64,000 bases of DNA from Tetradesmus obliquus (taxonomy: Eukaryota; Chlorophyta; Chlorophyceae; Sphaeropleales; Scenedesmaceae). The translations under genes were made by a program, and so were the position numbers. This document shows positions 40,491-58,113 of this stretch, one piece after another; within the stretch, counting starts at the first letter, position 1, and the number at the start of each line of letters is the position of its first letter. Location: NCBI GenBank assembly GCA_030272155.1, contig CP126204.1, positions 1,541,501 through 1,605,500 on the forward strand, written 5' to 3'. Below the pieces are notes generated by a model. That model saw only the letters and a list, made by a program, of their open reading frames with translations. It made no database searches and was not told where the DNA came from.

Positions 40491-43340
40491 TTGCTGCTGC
40501 CGCTGCTGGTGCTGCCGCCCAGCCTGCCCTGCTGGCAGGGAGCTCACGTCAGGCGCCACCCCACCCGCCTGCAGGGTGTGTGCTGCGGGCTCTGTCTCTG
40601 CAGGAGGCCTGCTGGCAGCCAAGCCAGCCTGCAGCGCATGCAGTGCCAACAAGACAACTCTGGGTGCCAACAGGGTCCGCTGCACCGGTGAGCAGCGTGC
40701 ATACACGTTGTGACAGAAAACAAAAGCTGCTGTGGCAGGTTGCTGATCTGGAGTTCACATCAGTGGTGGCAATGGCTCAGCCACATGATCAGTGCGCCAA
40801 TGCACTGTTAGAGATGCCTGCTGCCTGGACTGTAGGCTGATGCATCCGCTGCTGTAGTTGCTGCTGCTGCCAGCAGATGCAGCTGTATTGGGCTGCCTTG
40901 CCCTCCATCGCCAACACAACACAGCTGCTGCTGCTGCTGCTGCTGACCGCAGGCTGCAAACCTGGGTTTGGCGGCCCCTCTTGCGACATATGCAAGCCCG
41001 GCTTCTGGTCGCCTGGGGGAGCAGCCAACACCGCTACTGCGTGCCGCGCTTGCCCTGATGGCTCAATCACGCTGGGTGAAGGGTCAACAATAAAGGCTGA
41101 TTGTTTGAGCACGGCAATTGGTGAGTTGGTGCGACCTCAGCTGAGGGTGGCCGTACGGCACTTTAGGCCGCCAGTACTGCTGTGCACCAATATGGGTTGT
41201 GCAGCAGTACGGCGGTGCGCCAGTACGGCTGTGCACCAATATGGGTTGTGCAGCAGTACGGCGGTGCGCCAGTACGGCTGTGCACCAATATGGGTTGTGC
41301 AGCAGTACGGCGGTGCGCCAGTACGGCTGTGCACCAATATGGGTTGTGCAGCAGTACGGCGGTGCGCCAGTACGGCTGTGCACCAATATGGGTTGTGCAG
41401 CAGTACGGCGGTGCGCCAGTACTGCTGTGCACCAATATGGGTTGTGCAGCAGTACGGCGGTGCGCCAGTACGGCTGTGCACCAATATGGGTTGTGCAGCA
41501 GTACGGCGGTGCGCCAGTACTGCTGTGCACCAATATGGGTTGTGCAGCAGTACGGCGGTGCGCCAGTACTGCTGTGCACCAATATGGGTTGTGCAGCAGT
41601 ACGGCGGTGCGCCAGTACGGCTGTGCATTTAGTACGGCTGTGCGACGGCATGTTATGTTGTGTCATTTGCGGCATAATGTGCAGTGCCATGGCAGCAAGA
41701 CTCAAACATTTGCATCAGTATTTGCACTCATTCAAGCAATAGCGCTGCGTGTGACTTCGGAGCTGCTCCTGCATGTCAAGAACGCAACACCAAAGTGAGC
41801 AGCGGCAGCAGCAGCAAAAGCAGGGGCACTTGCAACTAACCACAATAAGCGCTTTTACTCAAGCAGCACCGTCAACAAAGCCTTGCGCTGAGGCTACGCT
41901 GCTGTTGCTGCCGCTGCTGCTGTTGCAATTGCAGACACAAACACCACCATACCAGTCAACCTGACAACCATTGCAGAGTTCACCCTTGAGGGAGGCACCT
42001 GCAGCAAAGGCCTGCAGGATGCACTGGTTGCAAAGTACGTTGAAGGAAAGCGGGATGCAGCAGCCACTGACGGGCTTTTAATGAATGCGACATCGGCAGT
42101 TCTCAACTGCACACAGGTGAGGACTGCACAACTTGGTACTGCCTAGCAGACACGAATGACGTTGACAGCTGACGTGCTGATGTTGATGTTGACAGCTGCA
42201 CTGATGTTGATGGCTGCCCATGTGTTGCAGGTGGCAGGCAGCTCGAGCATTCGTATCTTCACACAATCCATCACCATCAGCGCCACTGCCGCACCAGATG
42301 CCGGCAACAACACCGCGTCACCAGCAGCCGATGTTGGTACCGTCGACGCCCGCATTGCAAGCGTGTCTGCAGCTGCAGGCAGTAGCAGTGCGACCGTGTC
42401 GCCTCAGCTGTTCGGCTGGCCCTGGTGGTGGCCACTGGTGTTTGCAAAAAGCAAAACGAGGCCATCTGGAGGCTTGTCAGCAGCAGCTCAAGCTGCCGCA
42501 CGAGCACGCGAGGCTGCTGCAGTGGCGAACCTAGGCCGCGCCAACATCACCTCCAACGGCACCTCGGCAAACGTCTCTGCTGCAGGTGTGCATGGCTGAG
42601 CAGGAGCGGCAGCCGCATAAGCAGCAGCAGCAGCGCACGATGTCCTGATGACAGTTTGAAACGTGCGGGTTGTGTGAACTGCAGCATTGGCTGATGACAT
42701 TACACCCGCGGCATGCATATCATGCACTGCGGCTACAGGAGCAGTGCAATACTGGCTGCTCCTACAACCACCTTTCACTCGCTGTAATGAGCTGAGATCC
42801 GTCAATTCATAGCCACCGAGAGGCACATATGCTGCTGCTGATGATGATGATGATGATCAGGCCAGCAAGCCGCAAGCAACACTCTGTACTGTTCACCAGT
42901 GCCTTGTGTTGCGAGGAGCATACAACTGTCAATGTGTACTGCGACGTACAACAGCCAATGTGTACTGTGACGTACAACTGCCAATGTGTTCTGTGACGCA
43001 CCGCTGTCAATGTGTGTCGTGAGGTGCAACTGCCAATGTGTGCTGCGATGCACAGCTGCCATCGACTACTGCGACGCATCAATGGCACATCCTGCTGCGT
43101 CGCTTGTGATCATGCAGGCGTCGCCCAGTTCCAGATGGGCCAGGCCAACGGTAGCGCTGTCATCGTCAGTAGCAGTGAGTGGACCCTGGCGGTTGCGCTA
43201 CTGCTTGTGACTGCCGGGTTCACGGCAACTTTTTTCAAACCGAACTTGGCATGATGCTGAGCAGTACCTGCACTGCAAGGCTGGTTACATCGCTTGATTA
43301 TAGAACACCTGCTGCGCCCTGCTGCTGTGGTGCTGGCTGA

Positions 43341-43399
<59 letters not shown>

Positions 43400-45532
43400 T
43401 TGTTGCTGCTATGTGCGCTCTCATTGCACAACCCGCAGGCACAAGCTGCCTGGATGCTCCGCCCTCCAGCCTGTGGCAGCTCCCAACTGGTGTCAGTCTT
43501 GCAGGCCCCTCCTGGCAACTTGCATGCGGCTCCACACTGAAAGGAAAGAGCTGCACTGCATCGGCCTGCGACAAAGGAACTGGTGACCTCACAGCAACAT
43601 GCGCGCAGGACGGCAAGTGGGCCAACGGCACAGGCAGCTGCAGCCCACTGACATGCGAGAAGGCAGCAGCTCCTGCATTCGTTGCAGATGGTGCGACGTT
43701 TGATGCAGCAGCATGGGCAACCGCCTGTCGCAGTACGATTCAGTTCAGTGAGTGTGTTTTGAGCACAGCATGCTCCTCTGGATCAAGGCTGTCAGCGACC
43801 TGTGATTATCTGCCTGTTGGCGGGAACCTGGTTGCTACTTGGACAAAGTTGACGGGAAGCTGCACAGCAGCAGCACCGCCTGTTCAATGCAGCTCAGCGC
43901 CAGGGGTTGTTCCTACCCTGGGGGGTTCAGTATTCTTTCCAGAGCCGTGGGTTGGAGCGTGCGGCAAGACAACTGAAAATGCAACATGCAGCGTGGTGGA
44001 CGCTGCGTGCTCGTCTGGGGGAACCATCAGCGCAAAGTGCAGCAAGGGAACGAACGGAGCTGGGGTGTGGACGGATGTTCAGGGAGTTTGCAAGGCAGCA
44101 ACACTGCCTGTTAAGTGCAGCTCTGCACCAGGGACTGTGACCACTCTGGGTGGATCAGTTTTTCTGTCAGCTCTTTGGATAGGACAATGCGGCACAACAA
44201 CGGAAAATGCAACATGCACTGTGGTCGATGCGGCGTGCTCGGCTGGTGGAACCATCAGCGCAACATGTACTAAGGGTGCTGATGGTGCTGGGGTGTGGAC
44301 AGACATCCAGGGCAGTTGCAAGGCAGCAGTTCCGCCTGTTCAGTGCAGCTCTGCACCTGAGAATGTGCCCACTCAAGGAAGCTCTGTATTCTATTCAGAG
44401 AACTGGATTGGCCAATGTGGCAAGACAAAAGAGAATGCAACGTGCACTGTGATTGACATTGCCTGCTCGTCTGGCGGTACCATCAGAGCGGCGTGTGTCA
44501 AGGGCGCAAATGGTGCTGGGGTATGGGCAGACATCCAGGGAGCGTGCCTGGCGCCGCCACCACCAGCACGTGAGTTGATGTGCTGCTTCTACAATGCGCC
44601 TGTTCTCAGCAGCCCCAGCAGCTGCTACTCTGCTGCGCCATACTCCAGATGGAAAGTGATCTTGCTGGTCTGCACAATCAACTATAGCACATGTGCTAGC
44701 TGCACAGAGCAACATTCTCGAGCATTGCGTATTTCTTGACTTGTGGGACTGCAACGAGCACGTTGTTGTGAATTTTGCAGCTGTCGCACATGCTGCCACC
44801 TGCGCTTTCTGCTGATAGCAACAGGGTTGCCGTCACAGATTGTCAACATCATGTGCATGATGCACAACAAGCGGCGTTACTGCTCAGCACGGTGGTTTGG
44901 TCCATGTGCGTGCCTGCATGCCGTAACTTGTCTGATCTCTCTTGCTTGGCTGATAGCTGCACCCAGCCCTGCCGTACTATCTGCCTCTACCTGACGCTGC
45001 AAGCAACGCCACACCCTCTCTCTGCCTATGCGTGATATAGACACAATGCTACACGCTCTGAAGGCGCCGTTTGTGGAGCTACACCCATGCCTGCTGCCCT
45101 CTGCTGGCTGCTGCTGCTCCTGCTGCTGCTGCTGCTCTTTGCCTGCTTACTGCACGCCCTGCAGGTGCCTTCTGTGGAGGCACAGCCATGCCTTCTGCTT
45201 CCGGCGGCTGGGCCACAAACGGGGCACCCCTGGATGGTGCTGCATGGGGTTCTGTGTGTGGACAGGCGTACCAAGGCGATACATGCAGTGCTGCTGCCTG
45301 TGGCGGGAGCTTCACTGGCATGCTGTCAGCTGTCTGCCAGGTGGGGCAGCAGCACTGCTAGCGGTGGAATACATTTTCAACTCATGCAGACCACGCGATG
45401 GCCCCGCGTCATTATCCAACACCTGGCCCTGCATTATTGCAAATGCGATGCATATAGGCATAGCTCGGTGTCTGTGTGTTTACCCACATGCTGATTGTGG
45501 CTAGTTGTATAGCCACACCCCCAGAGTGAACA

Positions 45533-47551: not shown

Positions 47552-47698
47552 GACATTACGAGGCTGCAGCACCGATGACATTACGAGGCTGCAGCACCGA
47601 TGACATTACGAGGCTGCAGCACCGATGACATTACGAGGCTGCAGCACCGATGACATTACGAGGCTGCAGCACCGATGACATTACGAGGCTGCCAGCTG
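47552..47698. repeat. 25-bp minisatellite abutting the transposon array
   Basis: Six units (last one partial) of 25 bp starting gacattacgaggctgcagca, at 47552, 47577, 47602, 47627, 47652 and 47677. The sixth breaks after gaggctgc and the first 4310-bp unit follows within 10 bp. Confidence 0.95.
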
Positions 47699-49493
47699 TC
47701 ACTAGGCACTGGTACGAAAGTAGCGCAAAGGCAGCATACTCATTGAATGCAACTTTCAACAACGAATCTAAATCAAATTGAGCCACTATATGGGTTGCTG
47801 TGTAACTTGAGTAAAGTGCTTGCAAACCACCTGCTGCGCCCCGACTCTTTGAATTTTCGCGGGTCTGTTATCTGCTGCTTTCTGCTGCTATAGGGCGCTG
47901 CTGCCTGCACATATGTATTTATGTAACCGTTTCTACTTCTGGGCAGCACCTGCTGGCTGATCGGGCTCTGCAGCTGTGGTGTGCCAAGTGCCCTGCCGCT
48001 GTTGTTGCGGTCTGCTGTCTGGCCCTGTACGTTGTGCGCTGCGCTGCTGCTGCTAATCTTGTTGCGGATCACCGATCGACGTTTCAGCATTACAGGCAGC
48101 TGCTGCGCGTGTGCAGCTAGGGTGGTTGAGCACAGTTGGTTGAGTGCTGCCAGTCCACACACTCTCCTGCAGACATTCATCTTGTGTGATCACGCTGAAT
48201 TCTGGAGCTGAAAAAAACTAGCAGTTTGGAGCGGGCGCTGCAAGCAGGTGAGGTGCCTGCAGGACAGCTGACATGCAAGCAAACCAAGGCAGCAGGTTCA
48301 GCAGCTGTGCCTTGCTGTACCTACCACAAGCAGCAGGTTGCTGTGCCAGCATGGCTTTCTGTTTGTGTGCTATGTGGCTTTGTCTCATATCTGGGATGCT
48401 AGGTTCGTACCCTACCCCACTGAAGGCAAAAATGCACATCTTCCTTTGCTGCAGCAGTTCTCAGCCTGCATTGCAATCCTGCTGCTGCTGTTTCTGGGCA
48501 AAGTTGATGAAATGCCTGCCCACCTTTTTATGTTATAGCAGGCCTGCTGCAACTGCTGCTGGTGGTGCAGCTGTCCCAAATCCTGCATTACTGTTGTTTG
48601 CAATTGCTGGGACCTGCCTGGCCAGCAGCACATTCAGCAGCAGACAGCAGAGTGCAGCTCAGAGGAGGGTGCTGTCACCTGCTGTAGCCTCTGTTTTTCG
48701 AATGCACACTTTGCCAGGCAAGACAGCAGCAGCAGCAGCCTGGTGGTCATGCAGTGCTGCTGCTAAATTTACAAAAGCACATTCAGAGCACAGCCTTGTC
48801 TTGAAAGACGTTTTTAAAGCAATCCGAATTGTCTGCTGTTGCTGCCGCAGCACGATCGAGCTGGCGTAGCCTGCACAGGTGTCTTGGACTCACTGGCTCC
48901 GTGACCAGGCTGGCTGCCCGGCGTCCCACCGGAGAAAATTCTCGGCCCAGTAAGATGTAAGAACCAGCTGTTATGTATGAGGATAAGTTTGCAGCGTGAC
49001 AGCTGTCTGCATCGAGAGTGGCTGATTCGGCAGCACTTCCCCGTCACGGATTACCTGACTCAAACACAGCTTTCTCCTGCCGTGCGTCAGCTCAATTAAA
49101 TAGTTGAATAGATTTTATTACAATGCCAAGAGTGCAGCAACATCAAAGCATCCTGCTTGGTAGGGCAACCGTTGAGACAAGTAACGTGTGGTTCAGTAGC
49201 TGGAGCTGCATGAAGCACATGTTAGCACGTACAATAATTAATTTTAGCCGTAAAAAGTACAATCATTCACGCACATCGGCTCAACTCGCCTGCATGTGAA
49301 CTGCCCATCAACAGCACTGCTGCCCTGGCAGAACTGCCTTGCCACGCGCCCGCGCTTTTCACTCTGGGCCAGTCTATGCACCAATACACCATCTGAAAAT
49401 TATTATCAGATAACAATCTATCAACTTATCATGCCTGTGGCTGTCCATGCTGGCATACAGTTGAAAACAGAGACATAACCACCCAGCTACAGC
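47699..49493. other. Left arm of the 4310-bp unit, no recognised gene
   Basis: Holds a 135-residue open frame on minus (47773-48180, basic, MNVCRRVCGLAALNQLCSTT start) and a 198-residue one on plus (48273-48869, Cys- and Ala-rich). Neither resembles a family I know, and composition alone could explain both. A TTAAATAG-like A/T-rich spot lies at 49097-49115, about 390 bp before the plus-strand nuclease start, and might be promoter. Repeated in every unit. Confidence 0.4.
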
Positions 49494-51007
49494 ATGGCAC
49501 CAGCACATCGCCGGCGCCGTGCGGTGCGCACACACAGGAGCCCAACCAGCAGAGGAGCTGTCAGAAAGGTGAGCTTGCAGGGAGTGTCAATCAACGACCT
49601 GCTGACAGCTGCTAGCTGTCTAGAGTGCAGCCAGCAGCCATATACATTCTAAGCCCTGCAGCAGCAGCAGCAGCAGCGTGCTCAACGCTGATCATCCCTA
49701 GGCCAGTTGCCAGCCGTACCCGTGCGCTGCTTGTTGTCACGGCATACAAACACCCTGTCCAGCCTGCTGCGCACCACATCCCACAAATCTGGCAGCCTCA
49801 GTGCATCAGCCATGACAGAGGCAGGTGTGATGTTCATGAATATGTCACGCAGCGTCCGCTGCAGATCACGCGGTGATACATCTGCACCAGTCAGCTGGTA
49901 GGTGTTGTACAGATGGTTGCGGAAGCTAGCCTTGAGGCTGCCGAATGCATGCTCAATGGGCTGGTTGAAGTCTGGGGAGTAGGGTGCAATTTGCAGCACC
50001 TGCTCTGGGCTGATGCCAACTGCAGCTAGGAGCTCTGCGGCATCCTGCCCGACATGAACACTGGGGTTGTCGAAGATGTACAGCGGCGTAGTGCCGCGCG
50101 CGCGCTGCTGTTGGTTAGCCTTCTCTGCAAGCTCCTTCATGCAGTGGACAAACTCCAGCTGTGTCATGCTCTTGGCCTTCACGTTCTTCTTCTTCTTCTG
50201 CCTCTTCAACTGCAGGTGCAGGTTTTGCCGGGTTGGCAGCGGAAAGCCTTGTTAGCAGCAGCGCAGCTGAATGTGGATGTGCAAGTGGATGATAAGGGAC
50301 GCCCATTCATCAGGCTTGAGGCAGATGGGAAAAGCAGGCCCAGGATCATCAGCTTGGGGATACGCAAGCGGCCACTGCACTGGGCCATGACGGGTTGCCT
50401 GCCAGGTGTGCAGCACTTCAAGTTCTGCGAGCCGCGCGCTGCCGCAACTGAAGCAGCTCTGGAGTGCAAGCAGTGTGCATGTTTGATGCCTAATGTGGGT
50501 GGCACAGGCGCACGCAACATGCCTGCAAGTGAGGAGCAGCTGATGCGCAAGCTGTACAGGTTGGGAATATGTGACAGCATGTGCGCGCAAGTGGCAGTAG
50601 GGTGGTGGCGAGGCCGGGTCGATTTCTTGCATGCGCAGCGCAGCGTGCTGATTCAAGCAGATGGGACATGCCATGACACTGGTATGTATGACAACAGCAC
50701 AGAGAAGCTGTTGCAGCGCAACGTTGCCTTCTGTGCTGCTGCGTATGCCAAGTTCCTGCCAGCAGGCGGCAGTGTGCTGCGGGTGCGCACATGTGAAAGT
50801 GACTGGCAGGATTCCCTGGAGACTGGTTTCCAGCTTGCTGCTGGGGGTGGTGTCATTGTGCTGTCACCAAGCTACTCTGTTGTTATGGTCAGCGCAGGCC
50901 GCGGTGTGCAGCGCGCCTTCCCTGAGGCACTGCGAGATGCACTGCCACGTTGTGTGTACACAGAACGCAACAGCTGGCATGTCCTTCAATGGCGCGCATC
51001 TAACTAA
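49494..51007 (+). CDS. PD-(D/E)XK-like nuclease candidate, transposon copy 1
   Basis: Two exons in phase: 49494-49568 (25 residues, MAPAHRRRRAVRTHRSPTSR, very basic, NLS-like, gtgagc donor) and 50216-51007, giving 288 residues. Exon 2 has two CxxC-like pairs near residues 95-112 (FKFCEP, ECKQCAC) and then GRVDFLHAQRSVLIQADGTC with following H. A D161 strand turn followed by an L-I-Q-A-D-G strand resembles restriction-like (DUF559/Vsr-type) nuclease cores, with Gln in place of the usual Glu. This is family resemblance by eye, not proof. The intron spans the transposase's last exon on the other strand, and exon 2 lies inside the transposase intron. It may assist transposition or be a passenger. 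A longer plus-strand frame from 50054 is only read-through across antisense transposase sequence. Confidence 0.65.
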
Positions 51008-51900
51008 TAGCAGCACACACTCACATAGTATGGTGTGTTGGGGTTGCCAACGTGGTCAATGTTGTCTGTTGTGCCGGTGGTGAACTTGCAGTAGACAGCG
51101 CCGTGCACCGCGTTGACGCACACAAAGTGTAGCTTGACTGGTTTGTTGTCCTGGCCCTTGCGCATCCACTTGCATGGTAGCACAGCATGTACGTTTGCAT
51201 CATGTGCATCGCAATACACCTTGATGGCGCCGCCTGCTAGGTTGGACATCCAGAGTTTGCACTCATCAACAAAATAAATTCTGCTCAGCAAGTCTGGCTC
51301 ATCCTGGAACATCTTGTAGAGCCTCTCTGCTGCAGCCTTTCTCCTGTCTTTCTGCTTGTCTGTCAGGTCCATCTTTACATCTATTCTTCTGCGCACCAGG
51401 TTGGGGTCGACAGCTTTCATGCGCTTCAGCAGTTGCTTGGGCCTGATGTTGTACTTCCTGCATAGGCCACCCAGGTACTCATTTTCCTGACAAGCAAGTT
51501 TGATTGATGTCCACCATACATGCACGTCGACTTTCTTCTTTGCTTCTGCACTTGGGTAGGCCTTGACTACCTTGCCAGCTTTGAATGTTTCACTGGCCTT
51601 TAATGCCACGTCATCTGGGACTTTTGGGGGTCTGCCCTTGTGCTTGGGAGTTGCCACCGTGCCATACTGCTTGAAGTTCTTGTAGTGGGTCATGCAGAAG
51701 GAATTCAGGTCCTGTTTGATTTGAGCAGCATGCTTAGGATAGTGTACTCTGTAATAGCCTGCCGCGCCCTTTGGACTGCCGGCGATGGCTAGCATCGTGA
51801 GCACCGCCACCACCGCCGCCACCCGCGCGCCCGTTGACTTGCGGTTGCTCTCCCATCCCAAAGGGTGCTTGCGCACCATGGACAGCCACCCTGCAGCCAT
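49682..51900 (-). CDS. Tc1/mariner-IS630-type transposase, transposon copy 1
   Basis: Two exons in phase: 51025-51900 (292 residues) and 49682-50209, total 467 residues, with an 815-bp intron. The N-terminal half is basic and should hold the DNA-binding helix-turn-helix (GCAAGYYRVHY-like region, then HKGRPPKVPDDVALKASETF). The catalytic core shows RIYFVDECKLWMSN (D212), PLYIFDNPSVHVG (D339) and PYSPDFNQPIEHAFGSLK (E378). That is 38 residues between the last two, so DD38E by my count. It cuts and pastes DNA if active. The 5' start is the first Met of the open frame; upstream exons cannot be excluded. No internal stop was seen, so the copy looks whole. The intron houses the plus-strand nuclease exon. 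Confidence 0.88.
50210..50215. promoter_or_regulatory. Shared palindromic 3' splice acceptor (CTGCAG)
   Basis: The palindrome ends both introns. On plus, AG at 50214-50215 precedes the nuclease exon (50216). On minus, AG at 50211-50210 precedes the transposase exon (50209). Both exons then begin in the phase their partners need. The same site recurs at 54520-54525, 58830-58835 and 63140-63145. Confidence 0.75.
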
Positions 51901-53803
51901 GGATTCAAAACATATGCAGGCGTCAGCTGTGCTTCTGCTAGCAGTGCAAACAGAAATAACATGTCAGGTCAACCTAATGTTTGCAGCAACCTGGGGTTTG
52001 ACCAGCCTTCACTAGGCACTGGTACGAAAGTAGCGCAAAGGCAGCATACTCATTGAATGCAACTTTCAACAACGAATCTAAATCAAATTGAGCCACTATA
52101 TGGGTTGCTGTGTAACTTGAGTAAAGTGCTTGCAAACCACCTGCTGCGCCCCGACTCTTTGAATTTTCGCGGGTCTGTTATCTGCTGCTTTCTGCTGCTA
52201 TAGGGCGCTGCTGCCTGCACATATGTATTTATGTAACCGTTTCTACTTCTGGGCAGCACCTGCTGGCTGATCGGGCTCTGCAGCTGTGGTGTGCCAAGTG
52301 CCCTGCCGCTGTTGTTGCGGTCTGCTGTCTGGCCCTGTACGTTGTGCGCTGCGCTGCTGCTGCTAATCTTGTTGCGGATCACCGATCGACGTTTCAGCAT
52401 TACAGGCAGCTGCTGCGCGTGTGCAGCTAGGGTGGTTGAGCACAGTTGGTTGAGTGCTGCCAGTCCACACACTCTCCTGCAGACATTCATCTTGTGTGAT
52501 CACGCTGAATTCTGGAGCTGAAAAAAACTAGCAGTTTGGAGCGGGCGCTGCAAGCAGGTGAGGTGCCTGCAGGACAGCTGACATGCAAGCAAACCAAGGC
52601 AGCAGGTTCAGCAGCTGTGCCTTGCTGTACCTACCACAAGCAGCAGGTTGCTGTGCCAGCATGGCTTTCTGTTTGTGTGCTATGTGGCTTTGTCTCATAT
52701 CTGGGATGCTAGGTTCGTACCCTACCCCACTGAAGGCAAAAATGCACATCTTCCTTTGCTGCAGCAGTTCTCAGCCTGCATTGCAATCCTGCTGCTGCTG
52801 TTTCTGGGCAAAGTTGATGAAATGCCTGCCCACCTTTTTATGTTATAGCAGGCCTGCTGCAACTGCTGCTGGTGGTGCAGCTGTCCCAAATCCTGCATTA
52901 CTGTTGTTTGCAATTGCTGGGACCTGCCTGGCCAGCAGCACATTCAGCAGCAGACAGCAGAGTGCAGCTCAGAGGAGGGTGCTGTCACCTGCTGTAGCCT
53001 CTGTTTTTCGAATGCACACTTTGCCAGGCAAGACAGCAGCAGCAGCAGCCTGGTGGTCATGCAGTGCTGCTGCTAAATTTACAAAAGCACATTCAGAGCA
53101 CAGCCTTGTCTTGAAAGACGTTTTTAAAGCAATCCGAATTGTCTGCTGTTGCTGCCGCAGCACGATCGAGCTGGCGTAGCCTGCACAGGTGTCTTGGACT
53201 CACTGGCTCCGTGACCAGGCTGGCTGCCCGGCGTCCCACCGGAGAAAATTCTCGGCCCAGTAAGATGTAAGAACCAGCTGTTATGTATGAGGATAAGTTT
53301 GCAGCGTGACAGCTGTCTGCATCGAGAGTGGCTGATTCGGCAGCACTTCCCCGTCACGGATTACCTGACTCAAACACAGCTTTCTCCTGCCGTGCGTCAG
53401 CTCAATTAAATAGTTGAATAGATTTTATTACAATGCCAAGAGTGCAGCAACATCAAAGCATCCTGCTTGGTAGGGCAACCGTTGAGACAAGTAACGTGTG
53501 GTTCAGTAGCTGGAGCTGCATGAAGCACATGTTAGCACGTACAATAATTAATTTTAGCCGTAAAAAGTACAATCATTCACGCACATCGGCTCAACTCGCC
53601 TGCATGTGAACTGCCCATCAACAGCACTGCTGCCCTGGCAGAACTGCCTTGCCACGCGCCCGCGCTTTTCACTCTGGGCCAGTCTATGCACCAATACACC
53701 ATCTGAAAATTATTATCAGATAACAATCTATCAACTTATCATGCCTGTGGCTGTCCATGCTGGCATACAGTTGAAAACAGAGACATAACCACCCAGCTAC
53801 AGC

Positions 53804-56210: not shown

Positions 56211-58113
56211 GGATTCAAAACATATGCAGGCGTCAGCTGTGCTTCTGCTAGCAGTGCAAACAGAAATAACATGTCAGGTCAACCTAATGTTTGCAGCAAC
56301 CTGGGGTTTGACCAGCCTTCACTAGGCACTGGTACGAAAGTAGCGCAAAGGCAGCATACTCATTGAATGCAACTTTCAACAACGAATCTAAATCAAATTG
56401 AGCCACTATATGGGTTGCTGTGTAACTTGAGTAAAGTGCTTGCAAACCACCTGCTGCGCCCCGACTCTTTGAATTTTCGCGGGTCTGTTATCTGCTGCTT
56501 TCTGCTGCTATAGGGCGCTGCTGCCTGCACATATGTATTTATGTAACCGTTTCTACTTCTGGGCAGCACCTGCTGGCTGATCGGGCTCTGCAGCTGTGGT
56601 GTGCCAAGTGCCCTGCCGCTGTTGTTGCGGTCTGCTGTCTGGCCCTGTACGTTGTGCGCTGCGCTGCTGCTGCTAATCTTGTTGCGGATCACCGATCGAC
56701 GTTTCAGCATTACAGGCAGCTGCTGCGCGTGTGCAGCTAGGGTGGTTGAGCACAGTTGGTTGAGTGCTGCCAGTCCACACACTCTCCTGCAGACATTCAT
56801 CTTGTGTGATCACGCTGAATTCTGGAGCTGAAAAAAACTAGCAGTTTGGAGCGGGCGCTGCAAGCAGGTGAGGTGCCTGCAGGACAGCTGACATGCAAGC
56901 AAACCAAGGCAGCAGGTTCAGCAGCTGTGCCTTGCTGTACCTACCACAAGCAGCAGGTTGCTGTGCCAGCATGGCTTTCTGTTTGTGTGCTATGTGGCTT
57001 TGTCTCATATCTGGGATGCTAGGTTCGTACCCTACCCCACTGAAGGCAAAAATGCACATCTTCCTTTGCTGCAGCAGTTCTCAGCCTGCATTGCAATCCT
57101 GCTGCTGCTGTTTCTGGGCAAAGTTGATGAAATGCCTGCCCACCTTTTTATGTTATAGCAGGCCTGCTGCAACTGCTGCTGGTGGTGCAGCTGTCCCAAA
57201 TCCTGCATTACTGTTGTTTGCAATTGCTGGGACCTGCCTGGCCAGCAGCACATTCAGCAGCAGACAGCAGAGTGCAGCTCAGAGGAGGGTGCTGTCACCT
57301 GCTGTAGCCTCTGTTTTTCGAATGCACACTTTGCCAGGCAAGACAGCAGCAGCAGCAGCCTGGTGGTCATGCAGTGCTGCTGCTAAATTTACAAAAGCAC
57401 ATTCAGAGCACAGCCTTGTCTTGAAAGACGTTTTTAAAGCAATCCGAATTGTCTGCTGTTGCTGCCGCAGCACGATCGAGCTGGCGTAGCCTGCACAGGT
57501 GTCTTGGACTCACTGGCTCCGTGACCAGGCTGGCTGCCCGGCGTCCCACCGGAGAAAATTCTCGGCCCAGTAAGATGTAAGAACCAGCTGTTATGTATGA
57601 GGATAAGTTTGCAGCGTGACAGCTGTCTGCATCGAGAGTGGCTGATTCGGCAGCACTTCCCCGTCACGGATTACCTGACTCAAACACAGCTTTCTCCTGC
57701 CGTGCGTCAGCTCAATTAAATAGTTGAATAGATTTTATTACAATGCCAAGAGTGCAGCAACATCAAAGCATCCTGCTTGGTAGGGCAACCGTTGAGACAA
57801 GTAACGTGTGGTTCAGTAGCTGGAGCTGCATGAAGCACATGTTAGCACGTACAATAATTAATTTTAGCCGTAAAAAGTACAATCATTCACGCACATCGGC
57901 TCAACTCGCCTGCATGTGAACTGCCCATCAACAGCACTGCTGCCCTGGCAGAACTGCCTTGCCACGCGCCCGCGCTTTTCACTCTGGGCCAGTCTATGCA
58001 CCAATACACCATCTGAAAATTATTATCAGATAACAATCTATCAACTTATCATGCCTGTGGCTGTCCATGCTGGCATACAGTTGAAAACAGAGACATAACC
58101 ACCCAGCTACAGC

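What the first reader, a model, noticed from the sequence alone, without database searches (positions are those of the whole stretch)
49494..51900. Two opposite-strand transposon genes interlock through one palindromic splice acceptor
Transposase exon 2 (minus, 49682-50209) lies wholly in the nuclease intron (49569-50215). Nuclease exon 2 (plus, 50216-51007) lies wholly in the transposase intron (50210-51024). The six bases CTGCAG at 50210-50215 are the 3' end of both introns at once, so two exons on opposite strands abut a single palindromic acceptor. Both joins are in phase. A mutation in this site would hit both genes, and full-length sense and antisense pre-mRNAs would be complementary over about 2 kb. 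I know of no described DNA transposon with this arrangement, though I cannot search.
Basis: partly seen in the sequence, partly recalled or inferred. Interest (0 to 1): 0.9.

Follow-up and report, generated by a model that had tools for sequence, protein, structure and literature searches.

The report
Interlocked two-gene composite DNA transposon
In an unnamed, probably algal genome, a jumping DNA element packs two genes on opposite strands so tightly that each has an exon inside the other's intron, and it builds long tandem arrays on the same overall plan as a recently described animal element whose transposase is of another kind.

Summary
The layout is in the sequence as described. The plus gene (49494-49568 + 50216-51007) and the minus transposase (51025-51900 + 49682-50209) each keep an exon in the other's intron; CTGCAG at 50210-50215 ends both introns. 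Exons fill 94.3% of 2407 bp without coding overlap. A lineage whose plus protein is 57% identical keeps both frames, donors, acceptors and the hexamer. No RNA was available, so splicing is inferred. "One palindromic acceptor" is overstated: CTGCAG is two back-to-back CAG acceptors with separate essential AGs. It forms arrays, the longest I counted having 51 cores. Of 18 insertions with both ends found, 17 have matching 3-bp target duplications. Missing repeats leave C[A/T]G scars like Sleeping Beauty's. The plan matches KolobokP of animals (2022), but the transposase is IS630-like and the second protein is only weakly DUF559/Vsr-like. This is probably a second, independent origin of that plan, with an interlock that my ten literature searches did not turn up. 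It makes the proposal that a nuclease drives array growth testable. Interest 0.74; new variant of a known kind.

The parts
47697..47699 (.). 3-bp target-site duplication TGT, left of the whole array; its partner TGT follows the last unit outside the window (L002 position 4740)
47700..48422 (+). Terminal direct repeat 'module' (LTDR-like), 723 bp, first copy; own 25-bp imperfect inverted ends 47700-47724 and 48398-48422 (17 of 25 identical; 25 of 25 in family C element L043)
   Evidence: also 723 bp in family C
48423..52009 (.). Core, 3587 bp, ends AAGG...CCTT; carries both genes
52010..52732 (+). Second module; further modules start at 56320 and 60630 (period 4310)
49494..49568 (+). Plus gene exon 1 (25 codons)
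   Evidence: same-length open exon and donor in families D and C and recognisable in database protein P0018
49569..50215 (+). Plus gene intron, GTGAGC...CTGCAG, 647 bp, contains minus exon 2
50216..51007 (+). Plus gene exon 2 (263 codons + stop), probable DUF559/Vsr-like nuclease
51025..51900 (-). Transposase exon 1 (292 codons), carries first catalytic Asp (residue 212)
50210..51024 (-). Transposase intron, GTGAGTGTG...CTGCAG, 815 bp, contains plus exon 2
49682..50209 (-). Transposase exon 2 (175 codons + stop), DDE_3/IS630 domain, second Asp 339 and Glu 378 (DD38E)
50210..50215 (.). CTGCAG: 3' end of both introns; AG of minus = bases 50211-50210, AG of plus = 50214-50215
50185..50207 (+). 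Pyrimidine tract of the plus acceptor (88% pyrimidine in the 25 nt before the hexamer in family A, 64% in family C); on the minus strand it codes the transposase's Lys-rich stretch in family A
47552..47692 (.). 25-bp tandem repeat into which the array is inserted; it continues beyond the right end of the array

Best explanation
The stretch is the coding core of a composite-like DNA transposon: module - core - module, each 723-bp module a direct repeat with its own inverted ends. The core makes an IS630-related DD38E transposase and, from the opposite strand, a probable endonuclease. Each gene has one intron that holds the other's second exon, and the two acceptors lie back to back in CTGCAG. 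The catalytic triad is split by the intron, so only spliced RNA can give an active transposase. SHOWN from sequence: layout, conservation, 3-bp duplications round single elements and whole arrays, arrays, C[A/T]G scars where modules are missing. INFERRED: splicing itself; that the transposase cuts any pair of module ends (the outer pair moves the element, the two ends of one module excise it, leaving 3 nt); that the nuclease or the excision breaks drive out-of-register repair between modules, which grows the arrays (as proposed for KolobokP). The interlock most likely persists because it packs two genes into 2.4 kb and makes them hard to lose or move apart; a regulatory role of the complementary transcripts is possible but untested.
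For: Joins and splice sites. Exon 1 of the plus gene is 69% identical A to C, versus 36% just upstream and 60% in the intron-only gap. dN/dS A vs C (L043): minus exons 0.375 and 0.375, plus exon 2 0.586. 144 of 145 scored copies have no stop in plus exon 2 (274 candidates, 145 scored). All 9 database relatives aligned to transposase exon 1 run up to the donor; 8 read VSV there like the window, one VST. IS630 model E 2.9e-8 and DDE_3 E 1.4e-6, DD38E. Target duplications: 10 of 10 elements or arrays with both ends; 7 of 8 with both ends found. Module-free junctions: 19 found in the 32 loci scanned, 17 distinct, 10 CAG and 7 CTG, in family A; 2 of 2 CAG in family C. Sleeping Beauty leaves TAC[A/T]GTA (PMC3432063, passages) from 3-nt overhangs (PMC7827188, passages). 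KolobokP plan and model (PMC9587614).
Against: No transcript evidence; no genomic copy of the spliced plus junction (0 hits), and by the coverage columns no database protein spans either junction. Only two deep lineages could be read as DNA. The target duplications are not TA, unlike Tc1/mariner. Family A modules begin CAC, so simple overhang repair would also predict CAC scars, and 0 of 17 is CAC. One insertion (C8:1.66 Mb) has TAT/TCT. The NCBIfam IS630 score (33.5) is far below that model's cut-off (100). Nuclease activity rests on sub-threshold hits; another unrelated model (DUF6239) gives a better E (0.0049) in 2 of 15 members, and the 325-aa open frame hit nothing. Scars are amplified copies, so independent excisions may be few.
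Confidence: 0.72

Rival explanations
1. The plus protein is made from an unspliced nested gene inside the transposase intron; its 'exon 1' is spurious, so there is nesting but no interlock.
For: Exon 2 alone carries the whole conserved domain; 8 of the 12 relatives read start with a valine (GTG-type start), most of them at or near the exon 2 start, as gene callers place it without the exon 1 join.
Against: Exon 1 keeps ATG, frame, length and donor in families A, D and C; P0018 shows a recognisable exon 1 read into its donor; exon 1 is more conserved than its flanks. Family A exon 2 has no ATG before residue 58.
Confidence: 0.12
2. Only the transposase is real; the plus frame is open by chance or because of antisense constraint.
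For: The plus gene evolves faster (dN/dS 0.586) and has no Pfam hit above cut-off.
Against: Its exon 2 lies in the transposase intron, so no antisense coding constraint acts on it; 226 substitutions without a stop, P=0.001; 52 invariant columns in 15 aligned sequences.
Confidence: 0.03
3. The element is a KolobokP relative.
For: Same terminal-repeat plan, multimers in target duplications, second gene on the complementary strand.
Against: Transposase matches IS630/DDE_3; no C/DxxH between second D and E (sequence); ends are CA..TG, not RR..YY; scars keep 3 nt of the repeat instead of deleting 1-5 flanking bp.
Confidence: 0.05
4. Arrays are plain satellite growth by unequal crossing-over between modules; the plus protein has nothing to do with it. 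(Compatible with the rest of the best explanation, so the odds overlap.)
For: Direct repeats alone suffice; unit 1 of the window array differs from units 2 and 3 at 1 of 4310 bases; the target duplication encloses the array.
Against: KolobokP, with another transposase and nuclease, also combines this plan, multimers and a nuclease gene, which suggests a functional link (PMC9587614).
Confidence: 0.35

Closest known systems
KolobokP (Kojima & Bao 2022, PMC9587614; abstract, outline, sections 5, 7, 8, 9, 15 and passages read)
   Same: Internal region between two long terminal direct repeats that have their own inverted ends; (repeat-core)n-repeat multimers inside target duplications; missing repeats between cores; transposase plus a second gene on the complementary strand (a nuclease there).
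   Different: Reported from animals only; Kolobok transposase; His-Me finger nuclease; repeats ~450 or ~660 bp; RR..YY ends; TSDs 3-4 or 4-5 bp; excision removes 1-5 flanking bp. No interlocked introns in the parts read. Here: IS630-like transposase, second protein without a His-Me match, 723-bp repeats, 3-bp TSD, C[A/T]G scars, an array of 51 cores.
IS630-Tc1-mariner group, e.g. Sleeping Beauty
   Same: DDE_3/IS630-type DD38E transposase; C[A/T]G three-nucleotide scar.
   Different: Target duplications are 3 bp of varied sequence, not TA (or TAA/TAAA as in some pogo elements, PMC7386202, passages); composite plan; second gene.
Bacterial composite transposons (IS-flanked; as described in PMC9587614)
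   Same: Outer repeats whose own ends can be used alone or together (here inferred).
   Different: Here both genes are in the core; no open frame in the modules is evidently kept between families A and C (inspected by eye).
Opposite-strand gene pair sharing exon and intron boundaries (POU5F1/TCF19, PMC8493703, abstract and outline seen)
   Same: Splice boundaries of two opposite-strand genes coincide.
   Different: [quoted passage not shown] here exons alternate and never overlap, and only the acceptor hexamer is shared.

Membership tests
KolobokP | Core flanked by long direct repeats with own inverted ends | tested here: met
   723-bp modules at both ends of the 4 single elements read in full (L041-L044); modules at both outer ends of 6 arrays
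KolobokP | Multimers (repeat-core)n-repeat within target duplications | tested here: met
   6 of 6 arrays with both ends in hand; a seventh (C12) was fetched but its right end was not reached
KolobokP | Kolobok DDD/E transposase with C/DxxH motif | tested here: not met
   DDE_3 and IS630 profiles only; no such motif between residues 339 and 378 (sequence, by eye)
KolobokP | Termini 5'-RR and YY-3' | tested here: not met
   CA..TG
KolobokP | His-Me finger nuclease | tested here: inconclusive
   no such family among the Pfam matches; weak DUF559 instead
IS630-Tc1-mariner group | DDE transposase of this type | tested here: met
   DDE_3 28.9 bits vs cut-off 28.6 on exon 2; IS630 E 2.9e-8 but 33.5 bits vs cut-off 100; mariner-derived SETMAR E 0.07
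Tc1/mariner superfamily | TA target duplication | tested here: not met
   17 matching 3-bp duplications of varied sequence among 18 insertions with both ends
Tc1/mariner superfamily | 3-nt excision footprint from element ends | tested here: met
   C[A/T]G at 17 of 17 distinct family A and 2 of 2 family C module-free junctions read; never CAC, although family A modules begin CAC
Zator superfamily | Zator/TP36 transposase; 3-bp TSD (TSD length recalled) | not tested
   no Zator sequences compared; PMC7386202 passages place Zator near IS630
DUF559/Vsr-type PD-(D/E)XK nuclease | Profile match | tested here: inconclusive
   9 of 15 members, best E 0.014, window member 0.19, below cut-off; DUF6239 in 2 of 15, best 0.0049; none for the 325-aa frame; no NCBIfam match for P0004, P0006, P0009; 0 genome matches at E 0.01 (controls: 4 of 14 genomes); 7 of 21 hits bear the JGI name very-short-patch-repair endonuclease
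DUF559/Vsr-type PD-(D/E)XK nuclease | Fold | tested here: inconclusive
   models of mean pLDDT 55.5 and 57.4, no match worth trusting

The most novel reading that the evidence does not exclude
A new transposon superfamily derived from the IS630 group has independently evolved the paired-repeat plan of KolobokP together with its own, unrelated nuclease, and has locked the two genes into each other's introns so that neither is easily lost alone and their complementary transcripts regulate each other; the nuclease converts single insertions into arrays of tens of near-identical copies.
Probability: 0.3. Interest if true: 0.88.

Novelty: new variant of a known kind. Interest (0 to 1): 0.74.

Why it matters
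If right, two transposase lineages (Kolobok in animals, an IS630-like one in this probably algal genome) converged on the same plan: paired terminal repeats, an opposite-strand accessory gene and tandem arrays. That turns the KolobokP proposal, that a nuclease drives array growth, into a testable general rule. The interlock is also an extreme case of gene packing: 94% of 2.4 kb is coding over two strands with no coding overlap, and the acceptors are as close as two CAG sites can be.

Tried and rejected

Rows dropped before counts: single modules of truncated L039 and L040 (no matching flanks, none expected) from the target-duplication count; the C12 array (right end not reached); C2:2.09 Mb (no ends found); L007 was not scanned.

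Literature: 10 answered searches of an open-licence PMC library; in what they listed I found no paper on this element or on opposite-strand genes interlocked through abutting acceptors. Subscription papers and Repbase were not searchable.

Full report
WHAT WAS CHECKED. The window lies in a 104.7-Mb, 17-contig genome (G000:C14:1541501-1605500). The three contig starts and one contig end that I read carry TTTAGGG-type telomere repeats, so these look like chromosome ends.

OBSERVATION. Every coordinate in the finding holds. Both joins are phase 0 and give single open frames of 288 and 467 residues. The four exons alternate by strand, plus-minus-plus-minus, and cover 2271 of 2407 bp with no coding overlap. 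The space between minus exon 2 and plus exon 2 is six bases, CTGCAG. Each intron ends in CAG there, so the palindrome is the sum of two abutting acceptors. The AG of the minus gene (50210-50211) and that of the plus gene (50214-50215) do not overlap. The pyrimidine tract for the plus acceptor lies in minus exon 2; in family A it is 88% pyrimidine because the transposase there encodes a run of lysines. In family C that run is gone and the tract is 64% pyrimidine.

CONSERVATION. The same unit occurs in many copies: the 15-mer CTTCAACTGCAGGTG has 272 exact matches genome-wide and 0 for the reversed control. With flanking bases, 278 sites match with any hexamer (control 1) and 269 with CTGCAG (control 0), each at up to 2 mismatches; most are recent duplicates, so this is weak evidence. 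The useful comparison is family A (window) against family C (57% protein identity for plus exon 2). The plus donor, the minus donor and both acceptors are kept, and the hexamer sits in a 17-base run identical in the four compared copies. That run ties for third longest in 1911 columns; 274 of 1906 hexamer positions (14.4%) are identical anyway, so the hexamer alone proves little. dN/dS against L043 is 0.375 and 0.375 for the transposase exons and 0.586 for plus exon 2; against L041 it is 0.401, 0.372 and 0.593. A neutral simulation of plus exon 2 gives P=0.001 for no stop. Plus exon 1 is 69% identical, while the sequence just before it is 36% and the intron-only gap 60% identical. P0018, a database protein, begins with a recognisable exon 1 that reads into its donor. 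The 9 database relatives aligned to transposase exon 1 all run up to the donor, 8 with VSV like the window and one with VST. Of 14 copies checked, 12 keep both genes open (8 of them near-identical family A units); L039 has an open plus gene but a broken, truncated transposase, and L040 is truncated with one stop in the plus gene.

THE LARGER OBJECT. In the window the unit repeats every 4310 bp from 47700: a 723-bp module and a 3587-bp core. Single elements elsewhere read module-core-module, about 5.0 kb. The modules are direct repeats of each other but have 25-bp inverted ends, 17 of 25 identical in the window and 25 of 25 in L043. All ten single elements or arrays with both ends carry an exact 3-bp duplication of the target outside the outermost modules (TGT, CAT, TTT, TAA, AAT, ACA, AGC, TCA, TTG, ATC). 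One search adds 7 of 8 single elements with both ends found (GGT, TCT, GCC, AAT, GGC, AAC, CAC; the miss is TAT/TCT); a ninth site showed no ends. In total 17 of 18. So whole arrays sit between one pair of duplications, which fits growth after insertion. The array of the window holds 5 cores; by my count of the listings, C4 holds 38 cores and C13 51; listings are capped, so longer ones may exist. The window array lies inside a 25-bp tandem repeat that continues on both sides.

SCARS. Some neighbouring cores lack the module between them. Among 30 loci of the C4 array (L009-L038), 17 show such a junction and 13 a module. The junctions read CCTT-CAG-AAGG or CCTT-CTG-AAGG: 19 seen in 32 loci scanned, 17 distinct by position, 10 CAG and 7 CTG. 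Family C shows GTCT-CAG-AGAC at 2 of 2. Sleeping Beauty leaves TAC[A/T]GTA (PMC3432063, passages) because its transposase nicks three nucleotides inside the element (PMC7827188, passages). The fit is close but not perfect: family A modules start CAC, yet no CAC scar was seen. In the C3 array, cores are flipped one by one (strands) while the two modules read there keep the same orientation; L042 shows the same inversion in a single element.

PROTEINS. The joined minus protein matches DDE_3 (E 1.4e-6) and NCBIfam IS630 (E 2.9e-8, below that model's cut-off) with a D212-D339-E378 triad, 38 residues between the last two. The first Asp is in exon 1 and the other two residues in exon 2, so an unspliced product would lack two of three catalytic residues. 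The plus protein found 25 database proteins or fragments with a profile search, all at least 48% identical to the window protein over the aligned part; their organisms are not told. Nine of 15 aligned members show DUF559 below cut-off, best E 0.014, while 2 of 15 show DUF6239 with a better E of 0.0049; 7 of 21 hits carry the name very-short-patch-repair endonuclease. Invariant residues in the 15-sequence alignment include D136, Q147, H153 and D154 of exon 2, which resembles the D...(E/Q)xDG..H pattern I recall for DUF559/Vsr. In the wider 27-sequence alignment with fragments, D136 and Q147 stay at 90% or more, H153 and D154 do not make that list. AlphaFold models were poor (mean pLDDT 55.5 and 57.4) and fold searches uninformative. 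I treat 'nuclease' as probable, about 0.65.

COMPARISON. KolobokP (Kojima & Bao 2022, PMC9587614; abstract, outline, sections 5, 7, 8, 9, 15 and passages read) has the same plan: core between long terminal direct repeats with own inverted ends, multimers inside target duplications, junctions lacking a repeat, a transposase and a His-Me nuclease on the complementary strand. Its authors propose that the nuclease induces unequal crossover. The present element differs in transposase type, termini and scar, and shows no match to that nuclease, so I do not file it as KolobokP; convergence is the simplest reading, though no tree was built. Tc1/mariner membership fails on the TA target (PMC7386202 and PMC7827188 passages). 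Zator was not tested.

MECHANISM. Shown: architecture, conservation, duplications, scars. Inferred: splicing, action of the transposase on module ends, nuclease function and its role in array growth. The interlock most likely persists as packing and linkage; a regulatory role for complementary transcripts is open.

Noticed in passing
G000:C13:1051470-1268256: Array of 51 listed cores, about 217 kb between one TAA/TAA duplication, with four cores in inverted orientation.
   Followed up: partly
G000:C3:7156944-7216160; L077, L078: Cores flipped individually within the array while the two modules read keep the same orientation, as if the core were an invertible segment.
   Followed up: partly
G000:C16:894296-916191: Family C copies spaced 10558 bp, not about 4282: perhaps a higher-order repeat.
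   Followed up: no
window 51025-51900 (minus), all 5 units of the window's array (L001-L005): Transposase exon 1 is one residue shorter than in the C4 copies (292 vs 293 codons); an Ala present in the C4 copy and in all 9 aligned relatives is missing.
   Followed up: no
window 49685: Unit 1 of the array differs from units 2, 3 and the visible part of 4 at this single base, so the array is very young or strongly homogenised.
   Followed up: partly
window 41169-41627 and 43960-44542: A 49-bp tandem repeat (9.4 copies, 98% matches) and a 228-bp tandem repeat (2.6 copies) outside the transposon array.
   Followed up: no
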